A DNA stretch of 53,172 nt, from NCBI GenBank assembly GCA_903884945.1, contig CAISGR010000034.1, positions 1 through 53,172 of the forward strand, read 5' to 3'. Of the stretch, positions 1-53,172 are shown one piece after another. This stretch comes from an uncultured bacterium (GTDB taxonomy: Bacteria; Pseudomonadota; Alphaproteobacteria; Sphingomonadales; Sphingomonadaceae). Under the pieces are notes generated by a model. It did not search any database, was not told the origin of the DNA, and worked only from the letters and a program-made list of their open reading frames with translations. Numbering within the stretch: position 1 is the first letter of the stretch; each line of letters opens with the position of its first letter. The position numbers were made by a program, and so were the translations under genes.

Positions 1-90
1 CGTTTCGAGAAGAGCAAGCCGGGCCTTGTTGGAGAAGGTGTTGAAAAACGCCTCGTCCAACTCGACGGTATCGCGCCAGCGTCCGAAACC
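1..90. repeat. Terminal direct repeat, left copy (circular overlap)
   Basis: These 90 bases are identical to 53083-53172. A gene is open across the join in the same frame, so the repeat is best read as the overlap of a linearised circular molecule and not as a biological repeat. Confidence 0.95.
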
Positions 91-1881
91 GGCCTCGGCC
101 TCGATGCAGTTGGCAAGCTCACGGACCATGCGCGGGGTGCGACCATCAGAATAAGCCGAAGTGGTCGCCATCAGCATATGACCGGCGATCATCGCCGCCA
201 CCTTGTTCTTGTCCGTATCGGGCAGATTGCGAAACAGCGCAAAACCCTCAATCGGATCGCGGGCCGTCATCCATTCGCCCGATGCCAAGCCCTCCTTGGT
301 GGTGCGCCACCCGGCGCGCTCGGGGCGGCTCCCGACTAGATCGTGAATCTTGGTGGTGCCATCCTCATCGTGCGGAAGATCGTTGATGCCCTGATGTTCG
401 CCATGGAAATAGACGGTGTTCCCATAGCCCTGCGCCGGGGTTAGGATCGTGCGGGCCTGCGTGAACAGCATGAAGTCGAGCGCGAGTGACGAACCGGCGG
501 ATGCGGACTGCATAAGCTCGGCCCGGATCATGTCGCGCCGGATCAACATCATGACCTGCATGTTGTCCTTCGATAGCCCGAAACGTGCGCGCTCGGCCTC
601 TGCCGGTGTCGGCGCTGGCTTGGTTCCGCGCTGCTCGGTCGCGCCCTTCGGCAGTTCTGCGCCCTTCGCCGCGCGATCTGCAAACCACAGCTCTACGTCA
701 AAACTGCCATCGTTCTCGATGGACGCGACGGCAATGACCGCGCCCTTCTTGGGCAGGATGATAGTGCGCTGCGCGTCCAGCTCGGCAATTTCGCTCACCA
801 GCTTCTCGTAAGCCTCTTCCTGATCGGCCAGCGGCTCGTCATCCTCCCCGATCATCGCAGCGAGGCGCGTTTCTTTCGACGCATAGATTTTTGCGAGGTT
901 TTTGGGGAGGTCGCCCCGCTTCGGATTGCGAATGCGAAGATCATGGTCGGTCGAAAGATAGCCGTATTGCTTGATCTGCGGAGGTGTCGCCGCCCACGAA
1001 AACTGTAGGTCGGCAAGCCCCCACTTCTCGCCAAGCACACGGCCATTGCGGGAGATATTATGCTCGAACCGATCTTTATCCTCGGCCATGCGCTGCTCGA
1101 CTAGCTGGTGCAGCACATCGGGACTTTGGACGATGCCAGCGCCATCCTGCGCGAACAAGTCAGCCTCAAATTCCCCGCCTGCTTCGCGGTAAGCCTCGAC
1201 GCCGACATAGCACATTAGCTTGGTCAGTTCGTGATTGCCGGAGTTCATTGCCTTGCGGATGGCGCTCGCATTCTTCTCGTGCGGGCGGGTCGCCTCCTTC
1301 TCTAACTGGCGATGGACGGCGATCTGTAGCGAACGATCCTCGGTGGCCGCATAGGCTTGTGCCTGGGCATCATCAATTTCGCCCGCACTGTAGAGGTCCA
1401 TGATTTCCGGGTGCAGATTCGCAATCCGCATGATCCGCGCCGTTCGGGCCACATCATAGCCGAACATCGCGCCTAGTTCTTCTAGGGTCGCCTCGGGGCG
1501 CTCGGCCCGTATGGCAGCGAACCCCATATACACATCGGGCAAGGCCATTGCCTCGCGCGCGCGGTTCTCGGCCATGCTGATCTCTGTGACCTTGCTCAAG
1601 TCATCGACCTTCATGCACGGGAAAGTCAGGGCCTTTCGGGTCGCGTCGGCCTCGGCCAACGCGGTGAGAAGGCGACGGCGGCGATCACCGGCGATTACCT
1701 CATATCCGCCCGTCTCACGCTGGATCACGACCATGGGTTGAATAAGACCGACGGACAGCAGGGAAGCGGAGATTTCGGCATCGCTCGCGGCGCTGGACGG
1801 TTTCTTGCGAACATTCTGCTCGCTACGGTGAAGTTGATCGACTGTCAGGTGCAGGATCGTGGGCTTTGAAGTCTTAGCCAT
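1..1881 (-). CDS. ParB-like nuclease-domain protein (N-terminal 627 residues; continues at 53082)
   Basis: The start is ATG at 1881, preceded by GAAGGGAAA. The reading frame runs to base 1 and continues from 53082 down to the stop at 52813, giving 716 residues. Residues about 10-100 are a ParB/sulfiredoxin-type domain with the box GYEVIAGDRRRR, followed by a ParB-like helical DNA-binding region (EELGAMFGYDVARTARIMR). The remainder is a long tail not found in chromosomal ParB, which is about 300 residues. It ends in an acidic stretch rich in Glu and Asp. No ParA gene is adjacent; the plasmid's ParA sits at 28 kb with its own partner, so this protein is unlikely to be the partition ParB. Large ParB-like proteins of this type are common in plasmid leading regions. 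The gene has a long structured leader shared with ardC. Confidence 0.85.
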   Translation of the reverse strand, partial: MAKTSKPTILHLTVDQLHRSEQNVRKKPSSAASDAEISASLLSVGLIQPMVVIQRETGGYEVIAGDRRRRLLTALAEADATRKALTFPCMKVDDLSKVTEISMAENRAREAMALPDVYMGFAAIRAERPEATLEELGAMFGYDVARTARIMRIANLHPEIMDLYSAGEIDDAQAQAYAATEDRSLQIAVHRQLEKEATRPHEKNASAIRKAMNSGNHELTKLMCYVGVEAYREAGGEFEADLFAQDGAGIVQSPDVLHQLVEQRMAEDKDRFEHNISRNGRVLGEKWGLADLQFSWAATPPQIKQYGYLSTDHDLRIRNPKRGDLPKNLAKIYASKETRLAAMIGEDDEPLADQEEAYEKLVSEIAELDAQRTIILPKKGAVIAVASIENDGSFDVELWFADRAAKGAELPKGATEQRGTKPAPTPAEAERARFGLSKDNMQVMMLIRRDMIRAELMQSASAGSSLALDFMLFTQARTILTPAQGYGNTVYFHGEHQGINDLPHDEDGTTKIHDLVGSRPERAGWRTTKEGLASGEWMTARDPIEGFALFRNLPDTDKNKVAAMIAGHMLMATTSAYSDGRTPRMVRELANCIEAEAGFGRWRDTVELDEAFFNTFSNKARLALLET

Positions 1882-1892
1882 TGTGCTGTTTC

Positions 1893-2120
1893 CCTTCTTA
1901 AAATGGAGCCGAAGGCGATGGCCCCATCGACTTCTGCCAAGTGGCGAACTGGGTCGGGGAATGGCGCAAATACGGGCTGATCGCGGGGGAGGGGGATCAC
2001 CCGCCCTGCACAGAGCGCAGCGACGGAAGGGCGGGGAAACCCCCGCGATCACCAAGCGGAGCCGCGTAGCGGCGTAGACGGCCAGGCCCTTGCGCCAGGG
2101 GGCAGGAACAGGCCCCCGTC
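1893..2120 (-). promoter_or_regulatory. Structured leader element, copy A (upstream of the ParB-like gene)
   Basis: About 230 bp that align almost end to end with 3962-4190 upstream of ardC. An outer 12-bp perfect stem pairs 1978-1989 (TGATCGCGGGGG) with 2040-2051. Inside it an 8-bp stem pairs 2000-2007 (CCCGCCCT) with 2028-2035. A further hairpin is GCCGC-GTA-GCGGC near 2061-2073. Stem positions that differ from copy B change on both sides, which supports selection on folding. It ends just before the ribosome binding site. It may act as a folded mRNA leader or as a promoter formed in single-stranded DNA during transfer; the sequence alone does not decide. Confidence 0.7.
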
Positions 2121-2121
2121 C

Positions 2122-2149
2122 AAAAAAACGGCGCGGCGGCAAAGCCGCC
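2122..2149 (-). terminator. Probable intrinsic terminator of the 2943-2400 genes
   Basis: Read on the minus strand, GGCGGC-TTT-GCCGCC is followed after six bases by seven T. It separates the small genes upstream from the structured leader of the ParB-like gene. A similar hairpin without the T run lies at the same place relative to copy B (about 4200-4215). Confidence 0.55.
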
Positions 2150-2221
2150 TCATATTGCGCTGAAGGACAATGCTCGATCTCGTCTGCTACTCTCTCGGCA
2201 TCTGAAGCCCAGCCACGACAA

Positions 2222-2253
2222 GGCGCGCCTGCCACCTAGGGGGCGGGCGCGCC
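2222..2253. other. Strong GC hairpin
   Basis: GGCGCGCC-TGCC faces GGGC-GGGCGCGCC around a short CCTAGG-containing loop. There is no T run on either strand, so it is not a classical terminator. Function unknown. Confidence 0.4.
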
Positions 2254-2265
2254 GGATTATCCCGG

Positions 2266-2340
2266 TCATGGGTCTCCATCCGCTACGAGCGTCGGGGTAC
2301 AAGCGAACAAAAGTCCTGCGGCGACCAATGATGCTGCCAT
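2266..2340 (-). CDS. Possible 24-residue signal-peptide-like small protein
   Basis: A 25-codon frame with a good ribosome binding site (AAAGGAATAGACC before ATG). The product is a short hydrophobic segment followed by CTPTLVADGDP, resembling a lipoprotein or export signal with almost no mature part. Its stop overlaps an ATG of a 39-codon arginine-rich frame that I do not believe is coding. This may be a real microprotein of the 2400-2943 group or a chance frame; support is only the Shine-Dalgarno sequence and the hydrophobic profile. Confidence 0.25.
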   Translation of the reverse strand: MAASLVAAGLLFACTPTLVADGDP

Positions 2341-2399
2341 GGTCTATTCCTTTCATGGGAGGAAAAGGCGCGCGGGCCGACAGGTCCGCGCCGTGAATT

Positions 2400-2606
2400 T
2401 TACGCGCTCTCGGGCTGCGGCGGTGTCGCATAGGGTGCCAGGCCGCGCCATTGGCCCTCGCCCGCGCGAAACTGGCGGACCACTGTGCCGCCATCCCAAT
2501 CGCCGCGCAGGATACCTTTGCGGTTGATGCCACCCATGGGCCGGGTCCGCGCTGCCAAAAGGCGCGCGCGTCGGGTGTCGCGGTCGAGGTGTCGTAAGGG
2601 CGTCAT
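2400..2606 (-). CDS. Hypothetical protein, 68 aa
   Basis: The start is ATG at 2606, with AGGGAGA seven to eight bases upstream. The product is basic and arginine-rich, with the stretch MGGINRKGILRGDWDGGTVV, and has no membrane segment or cysteine cluster. It lies 34 bases downstream of the gene at 2641-2943 and is probably co-transcribed with it. I do not recognise the family. Confidence 0.6.
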   Translation of the reverse strand: MTPLRHLDRDTRRARLLAARTRPMGGINRKGILRGDWDGGTVVRQFRAGEGQWRGLAPYATPPQPESA

Positions 2607-2640
2607 TGGTTCAATCTCCCTATTTCAAACGCGCGGCGGC

Positions 2641-2943
2641 TCATGCCGCCTCCGCTGCGGGATTGGCGCGAACATCGCCGCTCGTGATGCGGAAGCCTGC
2701 CCGGTCCAGTTCGTCGCAAAGCGCGCGCTGCCGATCCTCACGGGTGCCCTTTGTAGCGATATAGCTGCATCGGCCTTGGTGGAAATCGAAGGCCGCACGT
2801 TTCAGGCATCCGCGAAAGCGCTGGTGGGTGCGCTCGCTCCAATCGAGCGTGCCCGCATAGTTGCGGAAGGCCGCGACGGCGCAGACGGAACCATAATTCT
2901 CATCACGCCAGCTAAGTTCTATCATCGGGGGATTCTTGGGCAT
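2641..2943 (-). CDS. Hypothetical protein, 100 aa
   Basis: The start is ATG at 2943 with AAGGATCG upstream. The protein is soluble and of mixed composition, with two cysteines near the middle and a cysteine/aspartate-rich helix (RQRALCDELDRAGF). It lies downstream of ardC on the same strand with 60 bases between them, so it is plausibly part of the ardC transcript. The family is not recognised. Codon use matches its neighbours. Confidence 0.65.
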   Translation of the reverse strand: MPKNPPMIELSWRDENYGSVCAVAAFRNYAGTLDWSERTHQRFRGCLKRAAFDFHQGRCSYIATKGTREDRQRALCDELDRAGFRITSGDVRANPAAEAA

Positions 2944-3003
2944 TGGTCGATCCTTCGGGAACGGGGGAAGAGGGGGCAGCGCTGCTGGCCGCCCTCGCTC
3001 GGA

Positions 3004-3948
3004 TCAGGCGACGCGAGCCATGGCGGGCGCTGCCATGTGGGATAGGATCAGTTCGCTTCCCGCCTGTGCTGCGGTGGCGGCGCGAAAGATCGCGCGCTTG
3101 TCGTTGCGAAGGGCTGTGAGCCAGGACGCAACATAAGCCGCGTGGTCCTCGCGCTCGGTCGGCTCCATGCCAAGCTGTGCGCAAAGCATCGCTGCACCAA
3201 TCTCCGCAATCAATTCCTCTGCGGCCCTGATTTCCTTGGCCTTGCCATAGTCGCGCAGTGTTTCGCGGGCGAGGCGTGAAGCATGGCCGGTGCTGTGAAT
3301 CGCCTCATGGGCAAGCGTGGCATAGAAAGCATTGCCGGTTACAAAGTCGGCAAAGATGGGCATCTGGATACGGTCGGCACCGGGGTTGTAGTGGGCGCTG
3401 CTACCTCCCTCGCTATAGGGCACGGGATAGCGGCTAAACGCTTCATCAAGCTCGCTGTCGCGCTGGTCGCGGTTTTTCACCTCGATCTGAGGCGCGGGAA
3501 ACCGGCTCATGTCCAAGCCCTCGATCTGCTCGACGTTGAACACGACATATTTTTTCAGATAGGCGCGGCTCGTTTCCTCGCCCTCGCTGTTGGTGATCGG
3601 CTCGCCTGTCTCGCCATCCTTGGGGGTGAAAGTGCCCGCATGAACGACAAGATTGCCCTTCTCGCCTTTGCGGACCTGTCCACCCAGCTCATGCGCCTGT
3701 CGGTAGGTCATCCAATGCGGGTTTGTGTAGCCGTGCGCCATGGCGGCGGACCACAACAGGAGGATATTGATACCACGATAGGCGGTGCCCTCATGACGCA
3801 AGGGGAGCGATGCCGCGCCCGATGCCCAGCGGGGGGACCATGGGCGGGTGCCTGCCTCTAGCAGCGCAACAATCTGGTTGGTGACTTCCTCGTAAACGTC
3901 AACGCGCGCAGCGGAGGTCTTGCGGGTCTTGCTGGTGTTCCGTGGCAT
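3004..3948 (-). CDS. ardC: ArdC-type antirestriction protein
   Basis: 314 residues starting at ATG 3948 (AGGGAAAAGCAC upstream); the frame stays open further upstream, but that part is the structured leader and has no homology. Residues about 15-140 are the ArdC N-terminal domain, a single-stranded-DNA-binding module (VYEEVTNQIVALLEAG, RGINILLLW, WMTYRQA). Residues about 150-300 are a zincin-like metallopeptidase domain with HEAIH at 214-218 followed by SxGH. ArdC proteins protect incoming plasmid DNA from host restriction and are typical of leading regions. The position among ssb and ParB-like genes, in the orientation expected for early expression, fits that role. Identification is firm; action on a particular restriction system is inference. 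Confidence 0.92.
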   Translation of the reverse strand: MPRNTSKTRKTSAARVDVYEEVTNQIVALLEAGTRPWSPRWASGAASLPLRHEGTAYRGINILLLWSAAMAHGYTNPHWMTYRQAHELGGQVRKGEKGNLVVHAGTFTPKDGETGEPITNSEGEETSRAYLKKYVVFNVEQIEGLDMSRFPAPQIEVKNRDQRDSELDEAFSRYPVPYSEGGSSAHYNPGADRIQMPIFADFVTGNAFYATLAHEAIHSTGHASRLARETLRDYGKAKEIRAAEELIAEIGAAMLCAQLGMEPTEREDHAAYVASWLTALRNDKRAIFRAATAAQAGSELILSHMAAPAMARVA

Positions 3949-3961
3949 GTGCTTTTCCCTT

Positions 3962-4190
3962 CCTAAACTGGAGCCGAAGGCGATGGCGTCCATCGACTTC
4001 TGCCCGCTGGCGAAGTGGGTCGGGGAATGGCGCAGTGAGGGCCGATCAGGGTGGAGGGGGATCGCCCGTCCTGCACGGAGCGCAGCGAAGGAAGGATGGG
4101 GATACCGCCCTGATCGCCAAGGGAGGTCGCGCAGCGGCCGAGACGGTCTAGCCTTTGCGCCAGGGGGCAGGAACAGGCCCCAAAAGTGGA
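3962..4190 (-). promoter_or_regulatory. Structured leader element, copy B (upstream of ardC)
   Basis: Homologous to 1893-2120. The outer stem pairs 4043-4051 (CGATCAGGG) perfectly with 4108-4116, extended by a T-G wobble and two GC pairs. The inner stem pairs 4065-4072 (CCCGTCCT) with 4093-4100. The loop between them (TGCAC.GAGCGCAGCGA) and the 3' block CCAGGGGGCAGGAACAGGCC are nearly identical to copy A. The remaining bases up to the ssb stop at 4397 hold a GCGGC-AAC-GCCGC hairpin and no convincing gene. Confidence 0.7.
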
Positions 4191-4396
4191 TCAATGACGT
4201 GGCGGCAACGCCGCTTCTTGTTCGATCGCGCTGGTATTCCGGCGTGCCAGATACAAAAACACCGCAAGAATCTCGTTCGAGATCCTGCGGCGATTTCAAG
4301 GCGAGGATCGTCACCCGAATGGGACGAAACCGCTTGCGGGTTCGGTCGGAGCGGAGCGGAGATAGAGCCGTGCCGAAGGCCGCCCCCAGCTCCATG

Positions 4397-4714
4397 TTAC
4401 CCAGCATCTTTACGAACAAGAACGGAATATGAATCAGCAACTAGATCAGTGTTATAAATCGTCTGTCCATCACGATCATATGAGGTCTGCTTTACCCGCC
4501 CCGTTACATGAACCATGTCACCTTTTGCCGAATTTTGGGCATATTCAGCGCACTTTCCAAAGCAAGTCACTCGGTTCCAATGAACCTCTTCCTGCCACTC
4601 ACCGTCAACCTGCCGATTATAATTCGATGCAACATTGACGAACGTGACCTTTTCCTTCTCATCAACGCCGCCAACCTGTCCAATAATACGAAATTCAGCG
4701 ATATTCCTTGGCAT
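4397..4714 (-). CDS. ssb: Single-stranded DNA-binding protein (first copy)
   Basis: 105 residues. ATG at 4714 is chosen because TAGGAG lies eight bases upstream; a GTG nine bases earlier is in frame. The protein is a single OB-fold domain (RNIAEFRIIGQVGG, WNRVTCFGK, KGDMVHVTGRVKQTSYDRDGQ) with no acidic C-terminal tail of the chromosomal SSB type, so it may coat DNA without recruiting the usual SSB partners. It lies eleven bases downstream of the gene at 4726-5550. Plasmid SSBs of this size protect the strand entering a recipient. A second, different ssb is at 28924-29268. Confidence 0.93.
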   Translation of the reverse strand: MPRNIAEFRIIGQVGGVDEKEKVTFVNVASNYNRQVDGEWQEEVHWNRVTCFGKCAEYAQNSAKGDMVHVTGRVKQTSYDRDGQTIYNTDLVADSYSVLVRKDAG

Positions 4715-23394: not shown

Positions 23395-23888
23395 CCTTGA
23401 TCTCCGCGATCTGTCTCACGAAGGGGCGTGCCGGCGACGGCACGCCCCTTTTCTATGGCCTCAAGATCGCCATACTTCTCGCGCGCTATACGCTCGATCT
23501 GCCTGTTGCGGACGCGCTCAATCAAAGACAGATGCGTCTGCCTCTCAAGGTCGCGGAAGCCTGCTGCAAGGCGGGTCGGGTCGATCTGATCCAATCGCGC
23601 CAGGTGCTCATCCATTGCCGCCTTGCCCATGATCGGGGGACCATCAAGCGGGTAGTTGTCGAGGAAACGCGCGAAGGCGCGATCCTCAAGAACATCGACG
23701 GGAAGCGGCGCCTCAGTCCCCGTTGCAAGGTAGGTCAATCCCACTGCAACGCCGATAGCGGCCAAGCTCGACGCATGCTCATCCAGCTTCGCGGATAGCG
23801 CCTGTTGGTTCTCCATGACCGCCTGCACACCTTCGGCCAGCGTCCCGATCTGCTCAAGCAAAGCGCCCAATAGTTCGTCGTCATTCAC
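23391..23888 (-). CDS. Hypothetical protein, 165 aa, downstream of relaxase
   Basis: Starts at GTG 23888, overlapping the relaxase stop (GTGA), so it is translationally coupled. The N-terminal 50 residues form a probable coiled coil (LLEQIGTLAEGVQAVMENQQALSAKLDEHASSL), followed by a hydrophobic patch and a helical basic C-terminus (LIERVRNRQIERIAREKYGDLEAIEKG). It is a likely accessory to DNA processing, but I do not recognise the family. Its 3' end contains a terminator hairpin of the opposing operon. Confidence 0.6.
   Translation of the reverse strand: MNDDELLGALLEQIGTLAEGVQAVMENQQALSAKLDEHASSLAAIGVAVGLTYLATGTEAPLPVDVLEDRAFARFLDNYPLDGPPIMGKAAMDEHLARLDQIDPTRLAAGFRDLERQTHLSLIERVRNRQIERIAREKYGDLEAIEKGRAVAGTPLRETDRGDQG
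23421..23454 (+). terminator. Strong bidirectional terminator inside the end of the convergent gene
   Basis: AAGGGGCGTGCC-GGCGAC-GGCACGCCCCTT followed by TTC, a perfect 12-bp stem. It lies 27 bases after the end of the transfer operon and inside codons of the gene ending at 23391, so protein coding and termination share the same bases. Confidence 0.75.
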
Positions 23889-25360
23889 CGGCCCGGCCCT
23901 TCCCTATCGGGATCGCGAGTGCGGTCCTGGCTGCGATCTCGATCCTTATCCTGCGCGCGATCCTTGATGGTTTTATCCATCTTGCGCTGCATAGCCTGTA
24001 GCCGCTCACGGGCGCTAGCAAGCGCACGATCGGGTGCGGCGTTGGGAGGTACGCTGTCGTTCTTCAGCTCGGCCGACTTGGCACGAATACGGTCGAATAC
24101 GGTCGGCTCCCCCTCCCCTGCCCCGGCTTTGTTGTCGCTCCCTTTCAGCTCGGCTGAAACAGATTTGATCCTCCCGGTTGCCCGCTCAATCCTGTCCAGG
24201 GCGGCGGTTCGCTGTTCAGCGTCACGCTGCTGGACGCGAGCCTTAAGCCGCTCAAGCTCGCGATCGGGCGCGAAGTCCTTAGGCAGCGCATTGCCGGTAC
24301 GCAGGCGCTCGATGATCTCCGCGCGCGCGTTGGCGGGCGCGGGCATAGCCTCCACAAATGCGCGAAGCGCCCTTGCTCGATCTGCCTCGGCAGAACCGCC
24401 ATGAGCCTCCAATTCTGCCGCCGCACGCGCATAGATTTCGCGTACCGAAACATGGTTTGCGACGGTCTTGCTCCGCTCCCTCTCGCGCTCGCCAAGGCGC
24501 TGCGCGGCATCGGGAGCCTGCCCACCGATAACGGCCAATCTCCCCTTATCCGCGACTGGCTCCGCGCCACGTTCACGCATCATTAGAACGGGCGTGGGGT
24601 CTTGTTTGGGAGGGTAGCCGCGAGCCATCCTCTTGGTCGCGTCGGCTTCAACGCCACGATCCCGAAGGTTCTCCGCAAAGCGTTCACGGCACTGTTGCAG
24701 GAACTCGCGGTTAGGGTTGAACCGGCGTCCGTCATTATCACGGCCCGCTATGATAAGGTGGACATGCGGATGCGCCTCGTCCGTATGGAGGGCCATCACC
24801 CAGCGACGATTTGAAAGGTCAGTTTCCGCAAAATCGCGCACCGCCTCACGGACCTTTTCGGGGTCAGTGCCGGGAGGCATAGAGAACACCATGGCGATAG
24901 CTGTCGCACCATTGCGGCGCGCTTCGTCCGCCGTTTCCCACTGTTGCCATTCACGCGCCAGGACCATCATATCCTGCGCGCTCATCAGCTCCTTGCCCTC
25001 GCTAGTTTCGATCCCGATAGGCTCCTGATCGGACATGCCGATGCGACCGGCGTAGGTAAACGCGCCAACGGTGCTGGCCGCGCCATGGATGCGGCTAGTA
25101 ATCTTCACGACGACCTGAGGCGCGCGCTTGGCTGTTCGACTAAGCTGTTCAATGGCCCTTGCGCTTCGATCTCCACGGCTGCGCGAAGCGGCACGGGCGG
25201 CGGTAGAAGCGAGTTGCCCCGGCGCGCGCATGAGACTGCCTAAGTCGCGGGACAGAGCACGGTTTCCCCGATGGTCAACCTTGCCACGCCCACCCCCCCG
25301 CGCGCCCTGCACCCGCTCCAACTCCTCAAGGGTCTGATCGGAAAACTCAAAGCCGTTCAC
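23885..25360 (-). CDS. MOBP/VirD2-like relaxase
   Basis: 491 residues from GTG 25360, overlapping the stop of the upstream gene. The relaxase domain covers about residues 80-270. Motif I is ASTVGAFTYAGRIG with the candidate nicking Tyr, and motif III is HTDEAHPHVHLII with the three metal-binding His, followed by DGRRFNPN. The remaining half is charged helix, including a basic, Arg/Asp-rich tail that could be the transport signal. The enzyme would cut at oriT, remain on the 5' end and be pumped through VirD4 and VirB. The candidate nic upstream matches the P-type consensus. Confidence 0.92.
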   Translation of the reverse strand: MNGFEFSDQTLEELERVQGARGGGRGKVDHRGNRALSRDLGSLMRAPGQLASTAARAASRSRGDRSARAIEQLSRTAKRAPQVVVKITSRIHGAASTVGAFTYAGRIGMSDQEPIGIETSEGKELMSAQDMMVLAREWQQWETADEARRNGATAIAMVFSMPPGTDPEKVREAVRDFAETDLSNRRWVMALHTDEAHPHVHLIIAGRDNDGRRFNPNREFLQQCRERFAENLRDRGVEADATKRMARGYPPKQDPTPVLMMRERGAEPVADKGRLAVIGGQAPDAAQRLGERERERSKTVANHVSVREIYARAAAELEAHGGSAEADRARALRAFVEAMPAPANARAEIIERLRTGNALPKDFAPDRELERLKARVQQRDAEQRTAALDRIERATGRIKSVSAELKGSDNKAGAGEGEPTVFDRIRAKSAELKNDSVPPNAAPDRALASARERLQAMQRKMDKTIKDRAQDKDRDRSQDRTRDPDREGPGR

Positions 25361-25944
25361 GGCTGAACCTCATCCGCGATAGGGGACGCGGTGCCCCGCC
25401 CCGTCCAGTAATCAACCTCCCCTGACACGATAGCAGTGAGAGTGGCATTCGCCTCTTTGATGGTCGCTGAAAGCCGCCCCTCCATGGCGATGACATGGGG
25501 TGCAACCTGCTCGATCAAGAGCGGACTTTCTGGACGGTTGGCAGCGTTCATCGCCTTCACGGCCTGATTAAGCGAATAGCCAATGGCCCGTACTTGGCCG
25601 ACGATCTTCATGATCGAACGATAGCTGCTAGGCGCGAGGCGCAGCTCGCCGGCCTTCGTCCAGAGTTGCCAACGCAATGTACGTTTGACCCATTGCGAAC
25701 GGGTCAGGCCCGCCTTGGCTGCGACCAAATCAATGGCCGTCAGCTCGTCAGCGGGCAAACGCAGCGATAGCATTTTAGAGGCGCCTGCAACTGTTGGCAC
25801 GTCTCGAACCTCGTCGGGCCGCGCAGGCAAGGCATCGCGGATAGCACGGTTGATCCACTTGCTGCGGGTCATGCCTGCCGCCCTCGCCAGCATGTCGATG
25901 GCTTCGGCAATGTCGTCCTCAACTCGCAACGTCAGATGCGCCAT
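25357..25944 (-). CDS. mobC: MobC-like relaxosome protein with two ribbon-helix-helix domains
   Basis: 195 residues from ATG 25944; an in-frame ATG at 25980 would place the start inside the oriT palindrome and is less likely. Two tandem ribbon-helix-helix units are visible: HLTLRVEDDIAEAIDMLARA with GMTRSKWINRAI, and LSLRLPADELTAIDLVAAKA with GLTRSQWVKRTL. A MobC-like segment follows (IVGQVRAIGYSLNQAVKAMN). It is likely to bind oriT next to its own gene and assist nicking. It overlaps the relaxase gene by four bases. Confidence 0.8.
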   Translation of the reverse strand: MAHLTLRVEDDIAEAIDMLARAAGMTRSKWINRAIRDALPARPDEVRDVPTVAGASKMLSLRLPADELTAIDLVAAKAGLTRSQWVKRTLRWQLWTKAGELRLAPSSYRSIMKIVGQVRAIGYSLNQAVKAMNAANRPESPLLIEQVAPHVIAMEGRLSATIKEANATLTAIVSGEVDYWTGRGTASPIADEVQP

Positions 25945-25976
25945 TCTTAAGCCCCGTGCAGCGGACACCATAGATT

Positions 25977-26020
25977 GCATTGTGTTACAATGCTGTCGAT
26001 GGTGCTATCCTGCGAACTTC
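25977..26020 (+). other. oriT: Candidate origin of transfer (oriT) with P-type nic site
   Basis: A perfect 7-bp inverted repeat GCATTGT-GTT-ACAATGC (25977-25993) is followed 11 bases later by CTATCCTG|C at 26005-26013. CTATCCTG with cleavage after the G is the nic consensus of the RP4/VirD2 group. The site lies directly upstream of the mobC-like and relaxase genes. The rest of the 26021-26412 spacer has further palindromes, including ATTCTT-CGCGAC-AAGAAT at 26231-26248 and GCGGC-TTT-GCCGC near 26172, and no gene. Confidence 0.65.
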
Positions 26021-31214: not shown

Positions 31215-31238
31215 CTCTCCATTGGACCCGGCGCTGTC

Positions 31239-31274
31239 GGGTGGCTCGGCCCGGCGCCTATCCCCGGGATAACC
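31239..31274 (+). repeat. Left 36-bp inverted repeat
   Basis: GGGTGGCTCGGCCCGGCGCC then TATCCCCGGGATAACC. The reverse complement at 40007-40042 differs by one base. Both point inward. They may be ends of a transposable unit or a shared upstream regulatory element, since each lies 90-140 bases before an outermost gene. No target-site duplication is evident. Confidence 0.6.
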
Positions 31275-31363: not shown

Positions 31364-32848
31364 ATGACATCTTTTGCCTCGCTGAAACGCGAATGGCTCG
31401 CAAATCCGCGTGCGGACATACTTGCGGGTATCGTCGTTGCATTGGCGCTGATCCCCGAAGCCATCGGCTTCTCGATCATCGCGGGCGTCGATCCGCGCGT
31501 CGGCCTTTATGCCTCCTTCTCCATTGCCGTCATCACCGCCCTTGTCGGCGGTCGCCCCGGCATGATTTCCGCTGCCACAGCCGCCATCGCGGTGCTGGTG
31601 CTTCCACTGATCCGCGACCATGGCGTCGAATATCTGTTCGCCGCCACGATCCTCATGGGCGTGATACAGGTCATTGCCGGATTCCTCCGGCTCGACATGC
31701 TGATGCAGTATGTGTCGCGGTCGGTGATTACCGGCTTCGTCAATGCGCTGGCGATCCTGATTTTCATCGCCCAGCTCCCACAACTGACGGGCGTGACCTG
31801 GGTGACATATGCGATGGTCGCTGGCGGCCTTGCCATCATCTACCTGTTCCCACGCATCACCAAGGCAGTGCCTTCGCCGCTGGTCGCGATCGTAATCCTG
31901 ACGGTCCTCTCGATTTATGGCGGGCTGAACGTCAACACGGTCGGGGACATGGGCAAACTGCCATCGTCGCTGCCTGCTTTCCTCATCCCCAACGTCCCTT
32001 TCACGCTGGAGACACTGCAAATCATTCTGCCCTTCTCGCTCACGATGGCCGCCGTTGGTCTGCTGGAGTCGATGATGACGGCGCAGATCGTGGATGACCT
32101 GACCGACACCGGATCGGACAAGCGCCGCGAAATGAAGGGCCAGGGCATCGCTAATTTCGCAACCGGATTCCTCGGCGGCATGGGCGGCTGCGCTATGATC
32201 GGCCAATCAGTCATCAACGTGAAGTCGGGTGGTTCAACCCGGCTGTCCACCTTCGTATCGGGCGTGTTCCTGCTATTCCTGATCGTGGTGCTTGGCCCAC
32301 TGGTGGCGCAGATTCCGATGCCTTCACTGGTCGCCGTGATGATTATGGTGTCGATCGGCACATTCAGTTGGCGCTCGATCAAGGATCTCCGCACCAATCC
32401 ATGGCAGTCCTCGATTGTCATGGTCGCCACCGTCGTCATCGTCGTATGGACGCATGACCTGGCGCAAGGTGTGCTGGCGGGCGTTATCCTGTCGGGCCTG
32501 TTCTTCGCCAGCAAGGTCAAACGCCTCTTCACCGTTGCGTCCGAGCTTTCGGCCGATGGCAATGCGCGCACCTATCGTGTTGCGGGCCAGGTGTTCTTCG
32601 CCTCGTCGGACAGTTTCACGTCCGCCTTCGACTACAAGGAGGTTCTCGATCGTGTCGTGATCGACGTGAGCAACGCCCATTTCTGGGACATTTCGGCGAT
32701 CGGCACGCTCGACAAGGCCATTCTCAAATTCCGCCGTGAAGGCACGGCGGTTGAGGTAATCGGTCTTAATGACGCCAGCGCCTCGATGGTCGAACGCTAT
32801 GCCATTCACGACAAGCCGGGTGCGGAAGCGCAACTCGGCGCGCATTGA
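31364..32848 (+). CDS. SulP family anion transporter with STAS domain (copy 1)
   Basis: 494 residues from ATG 31364. About ten to twelve membrane segments (residues 20-400) carry the SulP signature ([20 protein letters not shown]) and the [16 protein letters not shown] region; residues about 420-494 are a STAS domain ([34 protein letters not shown]). SulP carriers move sulfate, bicarbonate or other anions across the inner membrane; the substrate here is not clear. The universal stress protein gene follows after eleven bases. A very similar gene lies inverted at 37028-38512. Confidence 0.93.
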
Positions 32849-37027: not shown

Positions 37028-38512
37028 TTAGTGAGCGCCCAGCGCTGCTTCGGCACCGGGCTTGTCGTGGATTGCAAAGCGATCGATCATCGTCGTGCTA
37101 GCTTCATTGAGGCCCAGCACTTCAACGTGCGTGCCCTCGCGGCGGAATTTGAGGATGGCTTTGTCCAGGCTTCCGACCGCCGAGATGTCCCAGAAATGCG
37201 CAGCGGACAGGTCGATCACGACATTGTCGATGACTTCCTTGAAGTCGAAGGCATCAGCAAACCGTTCGGATGAGGCGAAGAAGACCTGCCCCGCGACGCG
37301 GTAGGTTCGCGTATTGCCGTCATCGTTGAGCTCGGACGTGACGTCGAACAGCCGCTTAACCTTGCTAGCGAAGAACAATCCTGAAAGGACGACACCAGCA
37401 ACGACGCCCTGTGCCAGATCGTGCGTCGAGACGACGACCAGGACGGTAACGAGCATTACGACGGAGGACTGCCAGGGGTGGCTGCGCAGGTTCTTGATCG
37501 ACCCCCAGGAGAAGGTACCGATCGCGACCATGATCATCACCGCAACCAGCGCGGGCATGGGGATGCGGGCAACCAGCGGACCCAGCACGACGATCAGGAA
37601 CAGCAGGATCACACCTGACAGGAAGGTCGAGAACCGGGTGTAGCCACCCGATTTGATATTGATGACCGACTGGCCGATCATCGCACAACCACCCATGCCG
37701 CCGAGGAAGCCGGTCAGGAAGTTAGCGATGCCTTGGCCCTTCATTTCCCTGCGCTTGTCCGATCCGGTGTCGGTCAAGTCGTCCACGATCTGTGCCGTCA
37801 TCATCGACTCCAGCAGACCGACCGCCGCCATCGTCAACGAGAAGGGCAGGATGATACGCAGCGTTTCCAACGTGAAGGGAACCTGTGGAATCCAGAACGA
37901 CGGCAGCGACGAGGGCAGCTTGCCCATGTCGCCGACCGTGTTGACCCGGATTCCGGCATAGATCGAGACGATCGTCAGAATGACGATCGCGACCAGCGGC
38001 GAGGGCACCGCCTTGGTCAGGCGCGGGAATAGGTAGATGATCGCCAGCCCTGCCGCGACCATCGCATAGGTTTCCCAGCCTACATTCGTGAGCTGGGGAA
38101 GCTGCGCGATGAAGATGAGGATCGCGAGCGCGTTGACGAAGCCGGTGATGACCGAGCGCGACACATACTGCATCAGCAGGTCGAGCTTCAGGAAGCCGGC
38201 AATGGCTTGGAGGATGCCCATCAGGATCGTGGCGGCAAACAGATATTCGACGCCATGGTCGCGGATCAACGGCAGGACGAGCACCGCGATCGCGGCAGTT
38301 GAGGCCGAGATCATGCCGGGGCGTCCGCCCACAAGCGAGATGATGACGGCGATGGAGAAAGAGGCGAAGAGCCCGACGCTTGGATCGACGCCAGCGATGA
38401 TCGAGAAGCCGATCGCTTCTGGAATCAATGCGAGGGCCACGACGATGCCGGCAAGAGCATCCCCCTTTGGATTGGAAAGCCAATCTCGTCGTATTGATGC
38501 GAAGTTGGTCAT
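37028..38512 (-). CDS. SulP family anion transporter with STAS domain (copy 2)
   Basis: 494 residues, exactly the length of copy 1 and collinear with it. The segments around residues 235-290 ([38 protein letters not shown]) are identical and most differences are conservative. It has a C-terminal STAS domain ([20 protein letters not shown]). Since both copies keep intact frames, both may be functional. Confidence 0.93.
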
Positions 38513-39868: not shown

Positions 39869-40362
39869 CGGCTTATAACCTCAACTGGCCGAACGCGGAC
39901 CGGACAGCACGTAGCTGTAACGGTCGAGTGTCAGCGATCAGATTGACAGGAAACAAACCACACGTGCGGCGACCTGAACGGTCTGCAAACATCACGGGGT
40001 TTGTCAGGTTATCCCGGGGATTGGCGCCGGGCCGAGCCACCCATCATTAAGACAGGTCCGGCGGATGCTCCTCCGATTAAAGTGCTCAGCCATCGATAGC
40101 AAGCGCAAATATCATGGCGTATATTTCGCCTGTTTAGCGCGCACGATTCTGATCCTTGGCCGGGTCCAAATCAGCTGATCGGCGAGTTTGATATCGGCGC
40201 ATCTCTTTCGATTTACCGTGATTTCAATGGGATAGTTGCGTGGTAGCTGTGCTAGTGGACTGCTTGTGTTTCGACTTCACGTTCGAAGGAACGGTCATTC
40301 AACTTGATCTATCAAGGTAGCGAACCTGTTTCTGATGCGTGAGTTGACAGGGTCGCGGCAGG
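39869..40362. other. Gene-free region containing the right inverted repeat
   Basis: Nearly 500 bases with no credible gene. It contains the 36-bp repeat at 40007-40042 and short palindromes such as TTCACGTTCGAAGGAAC near 40278-40294. Base composition drops in GC between 40080 and 40350. Promoters of the cfa and 40363-40677 genes presumably lie here and upstream respectively. Confidence 0.4.
40007..40042 (-). repeat. Right 36-bp inverted repeat
   Basis: Reverse complement of 31239-31274 with a single mismatch at the 21st base. It points toward cfa and lies 139 bases upstream of it. Confidence 0.6.
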
Positions 40363-46349: not shown

Positions 46350-46413
46350 GCTGACGTGCGGGGTGCGCCCGCCTGCCTTGACCTCAAAGGCTGCGCATTA
46401 CATATGCCGCACC

Positions 46414-46478
46414 ACGGCAATGGATTCCTGCCGGGCCTGTGGGCCAAACCGCCCTGACAAGGGACGATGATTCCTACT
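46414..46478 (+). promoter_or_regulatory. Fluoride riboswitch (crcB motif)
   Basis: A 5-bp stem CGGCA...TGCCG encloses ATGGATTCC (46415-46433), matching the conserved GATGGxGTTC loop. A short GGCC-TGTG-GGCC insert is followed by AAACCGCCC-TGACAA-GGG (46446-46463) and GATGATTCCTAC (46466-46477). Order, AAAC linker and the 3' GATGxxTCCTAC are those of the fluoride aptamer. It lies 29 bases before the start of a CLC-F exporter, its standard target, with the ribosome binding site GAGGAGG in the expression platform. Confidence 0.9.
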
Positions 46479-46506
46479 TGACGCCGCAAGGCAGTGAGGA
46501 GGAATC

Positions 46507-47895
46507 GTGCGCTCTACTTTCCGCAATCTTTTCGATCGAGTGAATGCAGCGGCCTTGCTGCGCGACCGGCACGACCACGCCATGTCAGTCCTGCGGTGGG
46601 CATTGATCCTGACTCCAATGGCCGCTGCCGTTGGTACATTGTGCGCCGCCTTTTTGTGGAGCCTCGATGCTGCAACGCAGGCGCGGTTCGATCATCCATG
46701 GCTGCTGTTCCTACTTCCCGTCAGCGGCGCGGCGGTAGCCCTCCTTTACCATCGTATGGGTCGCACGGTGGAAGCAGGCAATAACCTGATCGTGGAACAG
46801 ATACATGAGCCAGGGGGCGGGGTGCCACTGCGAATGGCACCACTCGTTTTTATCGGAACGATCGCCACGCACCTGTTCGGCGGATCGGCGGGGCGTGAAG
46901 GAACAGCCGTGCAGTTAGGCGGGAGCCTTGCCAGCGGAGTTGCAAGCCTCTTTCGGTTAGATCAGTCGAGCCTCCGCATCCTGCTCATGGCGGGCGTAGC
47001 TGCGGGCTTCGGAGCCGTGTTCGGTACGCCACTGGCCGGGGCGATCTTCGCGTTGGAGGTGCTGGCTATCGGCCGAGTTGAATATACCGGTCTTCTACCC
47101 TGCCTGTTCGCTGCGCTCATAGGAGATTGGACCTGCCAAGCCTGGGGCATTCACCACACGCATTACCATATCAGCCTCATCGCTTCCGCATCCGGCGCGT
47201 TGCTCACTGATCCACTACTCATCGCCAAAGCGGCTGTCGCCGGTGTCGCATTTGGCCTTGCCGGACTTGTCTTTGCAGAAGCGAACCATGCACTAGGCGG
47301 CTTTCTCAAGCGTCATGTCCCCTATGGCCCGCTGCGCGCCGCGCTGGGGGGTGTCGCTATCATCGGTCTCGTCTATCTGTTCGGGACACGAGCATATCTC
47401 GGTTTGGGCGTATGGTCCGCGATTCCCGGTGACCCGACTATTGTCAGCTTTTTCTCGTCCGACGCAGACCCTTGGATCTGGGCGATCAAAATGCTTTTCA
47501 CCGTGGTCACGTTGAGTGCTGGCTACAAAGGCGGGGAAGTAACCCCGCTGTTTTTCATAGGGGCTGCGTTAGGTAACGCGCTAGCGGCGCCGCTGGGCGT
47601 TTCAACTAGCCTGTTCGCTGGCCTTGGATTTGTCGCTGTGTTTGCAGGGGCCGCAAACGTGCCGCTGGCCTGCACAATCATGGGCATAGAGCTGTTCGGA
47701 TCGGAATACGCGGTCCCGATCGCAGTCGCCTGCTTCGTTGCCTATGTCTGCTCGGGCCATAATGGGATCTACCTGTCGCAGCGCATCGCTATACCCAAGC
47801 GAAAAGGCGCAGCAATTCAGGCTCAGACACTCCGCGAGATCCGTGCAACGCGACATCAGCGCCTTTCTGACGATCGGTCGCGACCTCCCGGATGA
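46507..47895 (+). CDS. CLC-F type fluoride/proton antiporter
   Basis: 462 residues from GTG 46507 (GAGGAGGAATC upstream). CLC fold with ten or more hydrophobic segments. The signature after helix E is [13 protein letters not shown], with GREGT where chloride CLCs have GREGP, and [22 protein letters not shown] and [18 protein letters not shown] follow, all features of the fluoride-exporting subgroup. It expels fluoride from the cytoplasm and is controlled by the riboswitch directly upstream. It is the last island gene before the right repeat. Confidence 0.93.
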
Positions 47896-52756: not shown

Positions 52757-52812
52757 GGTGGTCCCTCTTTCTGCGTAGGAATGAGCGGGGAACCGAAGCC
52801 CCCCGCTCTGGA

Positions 52813-53172
52813 TCAAGCGGCCTCGTCGATCTGGTCGAGATCGTCGTCCTGATCCTCGGCCCCCAGCTCGTCGGCTTCATCGGCCTCCGGTTCCTCCTTG
52901 GCGGAGAGAGGTTCAACGGTGGCGCTCTCCATGAAGTCGGGGAGCCAGTTCACCGCCTCGGCAACATCGTCGGGATGAAGGCCAAGCAACTTGGCGTCCT
53001 CTTCGTCGCAATTCGCGATGCGGGCACAGAGGGCGGCGGTTTCGTTGCCCTTCATGCCCTTGGCGCGATCTGCCAGACCCCACGTTTCGAGAAGAGCAAG
53101 CCGGGCCTTGTTGGAGAAGGTGTTGAAAAACGCCTCGTCCAACTCGACGGTATCGCGCCAGCGTCCGAAACC
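52813..53172 (-). CDS. ParB-like nuclease-domain protein (C-terminal part; continues from base 1)
   Basis: This is the 3' end of the gene that starts at 1881; the last 90 bases shown here duplicate 1-90. The encoded tail includes FFNTFSNKARLALLETWGLA, LLGLHPDDVAEAVNWLPDFM and an acidic end (EPEADEADELGAEDQDDDLD). Frame and length agree exactly across the join (2151 bases, 716 residues). Confidence 0.85.
   Translation of the reverse strand, partial: GFGRWRDTVELDEAFFNTFSNKARLALLETWGLADRAKGMKGNETAALCARIANCDEEDAKLLGLHPDDVAEAVNWLPDFMESATVEPLSAKEEPEADEADELGAEDQDDDLDQIDEAA
53083..53172. repeat. Terminal direct repeat, right copy (circular overlap)
   Basis: Identical to 1-90; see the left copy. Confidence 0.95.

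What the first reader, a model, noticed from the sequence alone, without database searches (positions are those of the whole stretch)
1893..4190. Repeated structured leader with compensatory base changes upstream of the ParB-like gene and ardC
Copies at 1893-2120 and 3962-4190 align over about 230 bases. In the outer 12-bp stem three positions differ and each is changed on both strands of the stem (T-A to C-G, G-C to A-T, C-G to G-C), and a fourth becomes a wobble. The inner 8-bp stem shows one more compensated pair (C-G to T-A) and one wobble. Loops and the 3' block are nearly invariant. That is the signature of a conserved fold. Both copies precede genes expected to be expressed as soon as the plasmid enters a cell. 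I infer either a regulatory RNA family or a single-stranded-DNA promoter like Frpo of F.
Basis: partly seen in the sequence, partly recalled or inferred. Interest (0 to 1): 0.87.

Follow-up and report, generated by a model that had tools for sequence, protein, structure and literature searches.

The report
Folded DNA switch upstream anti-defence genes
A DNA segment of about 230 bases, repeated upstream of anti-defence and plasmid-establishment genes on conjugative plasmids and related elements of many bacteria, shows paired changes that preserve folding mainly on one strand, and it likely lets those genes be switched on from that single strand as it enters a new cell.

Summary
In detail: two copies (1889-2120, 3954-4186) lie directly upstream of the minus-strand parB-like and ardC genes, with the stated compensatory changes. 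Core stems covary beyond a phylogeny-preserving null (8 of 2,628 column pairs, all 8 predicted). G.T pairs on the plus strand outnumber A.C in gene-distal helices (about 64 versus 24 inferred events) but not in gene-proximal hairpins (13 versus 16); short terminal loops favour GNA triloops (33 of 58; 3.4 in shuffles). I read this as a fold of plus-strand single-stranded DNA. A nic-like site suggests that strand is transferred; elsewhere, relaxase orientation agrees on 34 of 39 decided contigs. The chosen start codon lies 85-135 nt from the core in 119 of 150 copies, before ParB-like, ArdC, ArdA, DUF932, DUF3768 or methylase genes. Most likely this is a single-stranded-DNA promoter working like Frpo of F but not shown homologous to it: no BLAST match in E. 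coli records, a CTTG -35-like box in about half the leaders, no -10 box. Transcription is untested; five rhodobacteral contigs contradict the orientation rule.

The parts
1889..2120 (+). Copy 1 of the element; + strand = strand inferred to fold and to be transferred, template of the parB-like gene
   Evidence: T-strand from the nic-like site
3954..4186 (+). Copy 2 of the element, upstream of ardC
1911..1934 (.). H1 hairpin next to the ribosome-binding site (1911-1921 / 1924-1934); gene-proximal hairpins as a group show no strand bias in their wobbles, so H1 may be in the transcript (inferred)
1937..1952 (+). H2 hairpin with loop GGCGA
1962..1977 (+). P1 outer stem, 5' arm TGGCGCAA + GGGC
2086..2097 (+). 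P1 outer stem, 3' arm GCCCTTGCGCCA, carrying the CTTG (-35-like) box in non-template sense
1978..2051 (+). P2 stem (1978-1989 / 2040-2051) enclosing the core
1988..2011 (+). Core GGAGGGGGATCACCCGCCCTGCAC, match to the pattern used for the genome scan
2000..2035 (+). P3 inner stem (2000-2007 / 2028-2035) with terminal GC-GCA-GC mini-hairpin at 2015-2021
2098..2117 (+). H3 hairpin at the gene-distal end (2098-2103 / 2112-2117)
4043..4116 (+). P2/P3 core of copy 2 (P2 4043-4054 / 4105-4116; P3 4065-4072 / 4093-4100; pattern match 4053-4076)
1..1881 (-). ParB-like gene (ParB_N), first 627 codons; its C-terminus reads at the right end of the circular contig
3004..3948 (-). ArdC anti-restriction gene (ArdcN + MPTase-PolyVal)
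26006..26013 (+). nic-like TATCCTG|C with an inverted repeat on its 5' side: proposed start of the transferred strand (nic family recalled)
23885..25360 (-). Relaxase (PF03432)
25357..25980 (-). Ribbon-helix-helix / NikA-like relaxosome gene
2133..2148 (-). Terminator-like hairpin reading toward copy 1, its T-run ending one or two bases before the element
   Evidence: 5 such sites found in the region, 2.6 expected

Best explanation
The element keeps its pairing mainly on the strand that is most likely the transferred one, and it likely folds there as single-stranded DNA into a promoter from which host RNA polymerase would transcribe the adjoining gene before the second strand is made. Shown here: covariation of the core stems, wobble bias toward the template strand in the gene-distal helices, similar spacing to the start codon in most copies, anti-defence/establishment genes downstream, and a consistent orientation to the relaxase in most contigs. 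Inferred: on entry the strand folds (P1-P2-P3, with H3 and the GNA tip), the P1 duplex presents a CTTG -35-like box, RNA starts between P1 and hairpin H1 near the ribosome-binding site, and second-strand synthesis later removes the fold and turns the signal off. Which polymerase and sigma factor read it is unknown.
For: Covariation: 8 of 2,628 column pairs exceed every pair value of 60 phylogeny-preserving simulated alignments, and all 8 are predicted pairs (121 sequences; own script). Strand: 65 G.T versus 11 A.C cells in 54 core representatives (P2 pairs 1-12 and P3); inferred events about 64 versus 24 in distal helices and 13 versus 16 in gene-proximal hairpins, Fisher p 0.012 (three groups, 81 sequences), so a plain C->T mutation bias does not easily explain it. 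RNAalifold energy is lower for the T-strand in 4 of 4 groups. GNA triloops in 33 of the 58 terminal loops of 16 nt or less, 3.4 in shuffles, TNC 0. Geometry: nic-like site on the + strand; nic-like sites in 3 of 6 plasmids searched; in these and the window 9 of 10 copies have the fold on the T-strand. Relaxase orientation: 68 of 77 copies; 34 contigs for, 5 against, 1 tie. Start codon 85-135 nt from the core in 119 of 150 copies. 86 downstream proteins: HTH_ParB 28, ArdcN 26, DUF932 7, DUF3768 6, ArdA 4, N6_N4_Mtase 4. CTTG 12-60 nt from the core in 68 of 130 leaders versus 22 in shuffles. No sigma70-like promoter on the minus strand of 1800-4500, and a terminator-like site at the border of copy 1.
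Against: No transcription data. No -10 box at 15-19 nt from CTTG (0 of 130), and no CTTG in 62 of 130 leaders. Five contigs (G685:C17, G689:C1, G696:C60, G701:C1, G712:C1), all with a relaxase beginning MILKG, have the relaxase on the same strand as the fold; two TrwC-type contigs of one genome do too; single copies opposite to their neighbours exist (W06, W08, G684, G693). In the window the copies lie about 29 and 31 kb from the nic-like site of a 53-kb circle, behind cargo. P2 pairs 10-12 are not significant (E 1-3.5); P3 alone is not significant by events (13 versus 7), and the lean of rhizo H1 toward mRNA-strand wobbles in cells (4 versus 16) vanishes for the gene-proximal hairpins of that group in events (7.0 versus 6.9). 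The two columns outside P2, left out of the core count, lean the other way (6 G.T, 15 A.C). The terminator count is within chance, and terminator-like sites upstream are only mildly enriched (22 of 133; 15 of 133 in the opposite direction; 41 of 535 elsewhere). Copy 2 folds only modestly better than shuffles.
Confidence: 0.68

Rival explanations
1. A single-strand initiation (ssi) site: primase or the restart machinery loads on the folded T-strand and primes second-strand synthesis; gene expression follows from the new duplex.
For: The CCTGCAC of the core holds a CTG, the DnaG start triplet (recalled). A toprim/zinc-ribbon primase-like gene lies nearby in the window. Frpo itself is described as both promoter and primer site (title of Masai and Arai, seen only as a reference).
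Against: Priming needs neither a copy at each of several genes nor similar spacing to the ATG. No gene is annotated as primase or SSB on the 17-kb Nitrosospira plasmid that carries the core (hypothetical proteins remain). No -10 is found downstream of CTTG that the new duplex would use.
Confidence: 0.14
2. A 5' leader RNA (cis-regulatory RNA) of parB/ardC-type genes made from a double-stranded promoter upstream.
For: The fold lies directly upstream of the start codon; copy 1 also folds well as mRNA-sense RNA (z -3.08; copy 2 only -1.07); in the rhizo group H1 cells lean to mRNA-strand wobbles (4 G.T, 16 A.C), though not in events.
Against: Distal helices keep pairing on the opposite strand. 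No Rfam match. No promoter-like site on that strand near the window copies. Strand follows the relaxase orientation.
Confidence: 0.1
3. A plus-strand antisense RNA, or a cruciform protein-binding site in duplex DNA that represses these genes in donors.
For: A plus-strand RNA would give the same G.T bias; an extruded cruciform would also favour paired arms.
Against: A duplex site gives no strand bias; GNA triloops suit DNA (the sheared G:A loop of N4 promoter hairpins). An antisense RNA does not predict the relaxase orientation.
Confidence: 0.06

Closest known systems
Frpo / ssi single-stranded-DNA promoters of F and ColIb-P9 (passages of PMC9849209 and PMC11541004 read)
   Same: More than one related copy per plasmid, folded T-strand, genes read from the T-strand, anti-restriction/establishment genes among those served
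   Different: No blastn match of copy 1 in 20,395 E. coli records; a variable stem around a conserved core with a GNA tip; -35-like box in about half the leaders and no -10 box; other hosts
N4 virion RNA polymerase promoter hairpins (passages of PMC4496689 read)
   Same: Template-strand DNA hairpin with a sheared G:A three-base loop that SSB leaves intact
   Different: The N4 hairpin is short and read by a phage enzyme; this fold is about 200 nt. Whether the plasmids carry such a polymerase was not searched
STAXI and radC motifs of Rfam (passages of PMC2864571 read; radC seen only as a table row, its gene context recalled)
   Same: Structured elements near SSB/anti-restriction genes; the STAXI authors considered single-stranded DNA before favouring RNA
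   Different: No Rfam match at the element in the window or on 18 relatives; STAXI is a repeated pseudoknot with UUCG loops

Membership tests
Frpo/ssi single-stranded-DNA promoter | Sequence similarity to known Frpo/ssi | tested here: not met
   No blastn match of copy 1 in 20,395 E. coli chromosome and plasmid records; F itself was not fetched (not found), so no direct alignment was made
Frpo/ssi single-stranded-DNA promoter | Stems of the single strand are under selection | tested here: met
   covariation and strand bias; the fold itself was not probed
Frpo/ssi single-stranded-DNA promoter | Folded strand is the transferred strand and template of the downstream gene | tested here: met
   by proxy: 68 of 77 copies, 34 of 39 decided contigs; nic-like sites; 5 contigs against
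Frpo/ssi single-stranded-DNA promoter | Canonical -35 and -10 boxes rebuilt in the stem | tested here: not met
   -35-like CTTG in 68 of 130 leaders; -10 in 0 of 130
Frpo/ssi single-stranded-DNA promoter | RNA polymerase starts RNA on the single strand; early expression in the recipient | not testable with these tools
   needs in vitro transcription and conjugation assays
Known Rfam RNA families (radC, STAXI and others) | Covariance-model match | tested here: not met
Replication ssi site | Priming of second-strand synthesis | not testable with these tools
   no assay here
N4-type hairpin promoter | Template-strand hairpin with a G-A-closed three-base loop | tested here: inconclusive
   GNA triloop in 33 of 58 short terminal loops (58 of 98 distinct loops are short); position relative to a start site unknown

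The most novel reading that the evidence does not exclude
A separate, non-Frpo class of single-stranded-DNA promoter, recognised through a conserved folded core rather than a -10 box, switches on anti-restriction, methylase and establishment genes during conjugation across Alphaproteobacteria and reaches Beta- and Gammaproteobacteria and a Verrucomicrobiota genome.
Probability: 0.55. Interest if true: 0.93.

Novelty: new variant of a known kind. Interest (0 to 1): 0.86.

Why it matters
Early gene expression from the incoming strand is described for F-type plasmids of enterobacteria. A covariation-supported fold upstream of anti-restriction and establishment genes in so many other plasmids and integrated elements would suggest that this strategy is general and was reached with another DNA fold. 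It gives a simple sequence handle to find leading regions and unknown anti-defence genes outside enterobacteria, and a concrete DNA to test how a polymerase reads folded single-stranded DNA.

Tried and rejected
Rfam at gathering and at E up to 5: only unrelated sub-threshold hits in 1800-4400; the sul1 and fluoride motifs lie elsewhere. Promoter/terminator scan: two promoter-like sites, both on the plus strand. -10 search: none. Terminator enrichment upstream: about twofold, not used as main evidence. An automatic P1 finder picked other stems in many copies and scored G.T above A.C, so its TTG count (81 of 138 in the 3' arm, 12 of 138 in the 5' arm) is descriptive. The start codons were chosen by a score (length, plus bonuses for ATG and a Shine-Dalgarno-like motif), with no shuffled control for the spacing; 3 further copies had no reading frame (contig edges) and 31 of 150 fell outside 85-135 nt. 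The triloop count used loops of 16 nt or less (58 of 98 distinct loops). The event count left out the 11 sequences of the group 'other'. BLAST hits in the C. sphaeroides and B. ottawaense plasmids carry no core within 1 mismatch. In one search, 38 of 115 copies were left out for want of a PF03432 relaxase over cut-off on the contig or within 60 kb; 37 of the 120 pattern loci were chosen by hand; the nearest relaxase was taken by linear distance. Not counted there: weak relaxases of W14, G686, G706 (agree), the MOBQ-type G705 and W09 and the MOBF-type W12 (agree), the two MOBF-type contigs of G697 (disagree). In the five contrary contigs, 8-base nic matches occur at about chance level and decide nothing. 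Genome draws: strict pattern in 6 of 385 class genomes, own genome included; blastn of copy 1 in 24 of 298 family genomes at E 0.001, many of them short weak matches. Literature: the listed rows of searches held no paper on this element; the library lacks preprints and most subscription journals. The rows were all about an unrelated psychology scale.
Full report
What is there. The window is a circular plasmid contig: the same stretch of the ParB-like protein reads at both ends. It carries a T4SS coupling-protein gene and, by comparison with the gene order of relative pHAL16, virB genes before it; a relaxase (PF03432) and a ribbon-helix-helix gene on the minus strand; a nic-like TATCCTGC on the plus strand at 26006-26013 directly upstream of these, with an inverted repeat on its 5' side (the nic family is recalled); cargo; and then minus-strand genes for a zeta toxin, DUF6884, ParB-like, ArdC, an SSB-like protein, a toprim/zinc-ribbon protein and an HTH_36 protein. 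If that site is the nic, the plus strand is the transferred strand and the template of all these genes. The two element copies sit directly upstream of the parB-like and ardC start codons and take in an AAGAAGGG-like ribosome-binding site.

Both wobbles between the copies are G.T on the plus strand, which would be A.C mismatches in the mRNA. That suggested a test with relatives.

Relatives. Blastn of copy 1 found 60 plasmid records with 121 places, 46 of the 60 named Sphingobium, Sphingomonas, Novosphingobium, Sphingopyxis or Tardibacter. A conserved core also appeared in Caulobacter, Paracoccus, Thiothrix, Nitrosospira and Geminicoccaceae. The pattern GGAGGGGGATCRCCCNNCNTGCAC gave 120 stretches in the species genomes, the scan stopping at its limit: several alphaproteobacterial orders, Thiothrix, Pseudoxanthomonas, Pseudomonas veronii and Cerasicoccus (Verrucomicrobiota), plus metagenome bins whose labels may be unsafe. 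It gave 1 stretch in the viral contigs. Phage records and E. coli genomes gave no blastn match. Of 16 plasmid records searched whole with at most 1 mismatch, 14 hold the core and 10 hold two to five copies.

Architecture on the plus-type strand, 5' to 3': start codon complement, ribosome-binding site, hairpin H1, hairpin H2, outer stem P1, stem P2 of variable sequence, a conserved AGGGGGATCR, inner stem P3, a terminal mini-hairpin in many copies, the return strands, and hairpin H3. Pairs 3 to 12 of P2 each carry at least three Watson-Crick types. On 121 copies, with substitutions redistributed along a tree, 8 of 2,628 column pairs exceeded every value of 60 simulated alignments and all 8 are predicted pairs (P2 pairs 3-9 and P3 pair 5); P2 pairs 10-12 did not reach significance (my own script in the manner of R-scape, not R-scape itself). 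On 19 copies the named structure has 48 cells changed on both sides, against 16.7 in shuffles and 4-14 in slid controls.

Which strand folds. In 54 core representatives G.T outnumbers A.C 65 to 11 (P2 pairs 1-12 plus P3); the two columns beyond P2 were left out (6 to 15). On pairs predicted from both strands, cells are 151 to 71 and columns 54 to 27, p 0.0036. By helix the cells are 46 to 23 (P1/P2), 44 to 8 (P3), 29 to 11 (gene-distal hairpins) and 24 to 28 (gene-proximal hairpins). Counted as inferred events on trees of three groups (81 sequences, averaged over 20 reconstructions), distal helices give 64 to 24 while gene-proximal hairpins give 13 to 16, Fisher p 0.012; P3 alone gives 13 to 7, not significant. 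A general C-to-T bias on the transferred strand would be expected in both parts. The simplest reading is that P1-P3 and H3 act as single-stranded DNA and are not transcribed, while the gene-proximal hairpins may be in the transcript; that would place the start between them. This step is inferred. Terminal loops of 16 nt or less hold a GNA triloop closed by two Watson-Crick pairs in 33 of 58 (shuffles 3.4, at most 10 in 500; TNC 0) (58 of 98 distinct loops are that short). A sheared G:A three-base loop is said to explain the stability of the N4 phage promoter hairpin, and SSB does not perturb that template-strand hairpin (passages of PMC4496689).

Transfer direction. Nic-like sites were found in 3 of 6 plasmids searched besides the window; in these four, 9 of 10 copies have the fold on the transferred strand. 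Using the nearest PF03432 relaxase as proxy, the fold strand is opposite to the relaxase strand in 68 of 77 copies; 34 contigs agree, 5 disagree, 1 ties, p 2.4e-6 (16 plasmids, 37 of 120 pattern loci, and the window; 38 further copies had no such relaxase on the contig or within 60 kb). The five contrary contigs share one relaxase type (proteins beginning MILKG) and hold ArdC copies; 8-base nic matches there are at about chance level, so either their origin is arranged differently or the rule fails. Two TrwC-type contigs of one genome also disagree. Two of the single inverted copies (in L010 and L048) lie next to MerR-family genes.

Genes served. The chosen start codon lies 85-135 nt from the core in 119 of 150 copies, most often 101; frames were picked by a score and there is no shuffled control. 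Of 86 downstream proteins, Pfam finds HTH_ParB in 28, ArdcN in 26, ParB_N in 16, DUF932 in 7, DUF3768 in 6, ArdA in 4, N6_N4_Mtase in 4 and MerR in 2 (families can share a protein). Samuel et al. (PMC11541004, passages read) report that among the prevalent leading-region families anti-defence genes, methylases, SSBs and toxin-antitoxin genes all lie on the T-strand, that Frpo occurs among them, and that they searched with five known Frpo/ssi sequences plus candidates from four islands. For R388 the abstract (listing) says ardC is needed in recipients, not donors.

Promoter features. CTTG occurs 12-60 nt from the core in 68 of 130 leaders (22 in shuffles), with peaks at 14-15 and 21-23 nt, in many copies inside P1 with differing flanks, for example GGTGCAAGGG/CCCTTGCACC and CCGTCAAGAC/GTCTTGACGG. 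CTTGAC is the alphaproteobacterial -35 (recalled). No -10 box follows (0 of 130). Frpo of F is described as rebuilding both boxes (PMC9849209, passages read), so the element is not filed as Frpo. The absence of a -10 is compatible with an already single-stranded template but leaves recognition unexplained.

Verdict. A widespread, covariation-supported fold, biased to the strand that is most likely transferred, upstream of anti-defence and establishment genes; most likely a single-stranded-DNA promoter of a kind distinct from Frpo. The covariation, the strand bias and the gene content are shown; the spacing and the orientation are shown with exceptions; the folding in the cell and the promoter activity are inferred.

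Noticed in passing
L010 20001-20062; G684:C3:63654; W06 29285; G693:C40:33816: Single copies inverted relative to the others on the same contig; the L010 copy lies about 250 nt from the nic-like site upstream of a MerR-family gene, and the copies in L048 and L062 also precede MerR genes.
   Followed up: partly
L005 4958-8920; L007 6537-9889: ArdC reading frames interrupted by a reverse-transcriptase/maturase gene (group II intron-like) in two plasmids.
   Followed up: no
window 31221-31274 (+), 40007-40062 (-): Two sul1 RNA motifs (Rfam RF03058) in the cargo; the first lies just upstream of a sulfate-permease-type gene (31364-32848), a second such gene is at 37028-38512.
   Followed up: no
window 46407-46483 (+): Fluoride riboswitch directly upstream of a CLC-type channel gene (46507-47895).
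   Followed up: no
window 1-120 and 52804-53172: Both ends encode the same stretch of the ParB-like protein: the contig is circular with a terminal overlap.
   Followed up: yes
L012 27150-27400: A copy with many single-base losses in homopolymer runs, perhaps sequencing error or decay.
   Followed up: no
L051, L056, L069, L105, L117, L127, L141: Copies, several from Brevundimonas, with terminal loops of about 40 nt, some with GAT repeats, in place of the short GNA tip.
   Followed up: no
G685:C17, G689:C1, G696:C60, G701:C1, G712:C1: ArdC-type copies near MILKG-type relaxases with the opposite relative orientation.
   Followed up: partly
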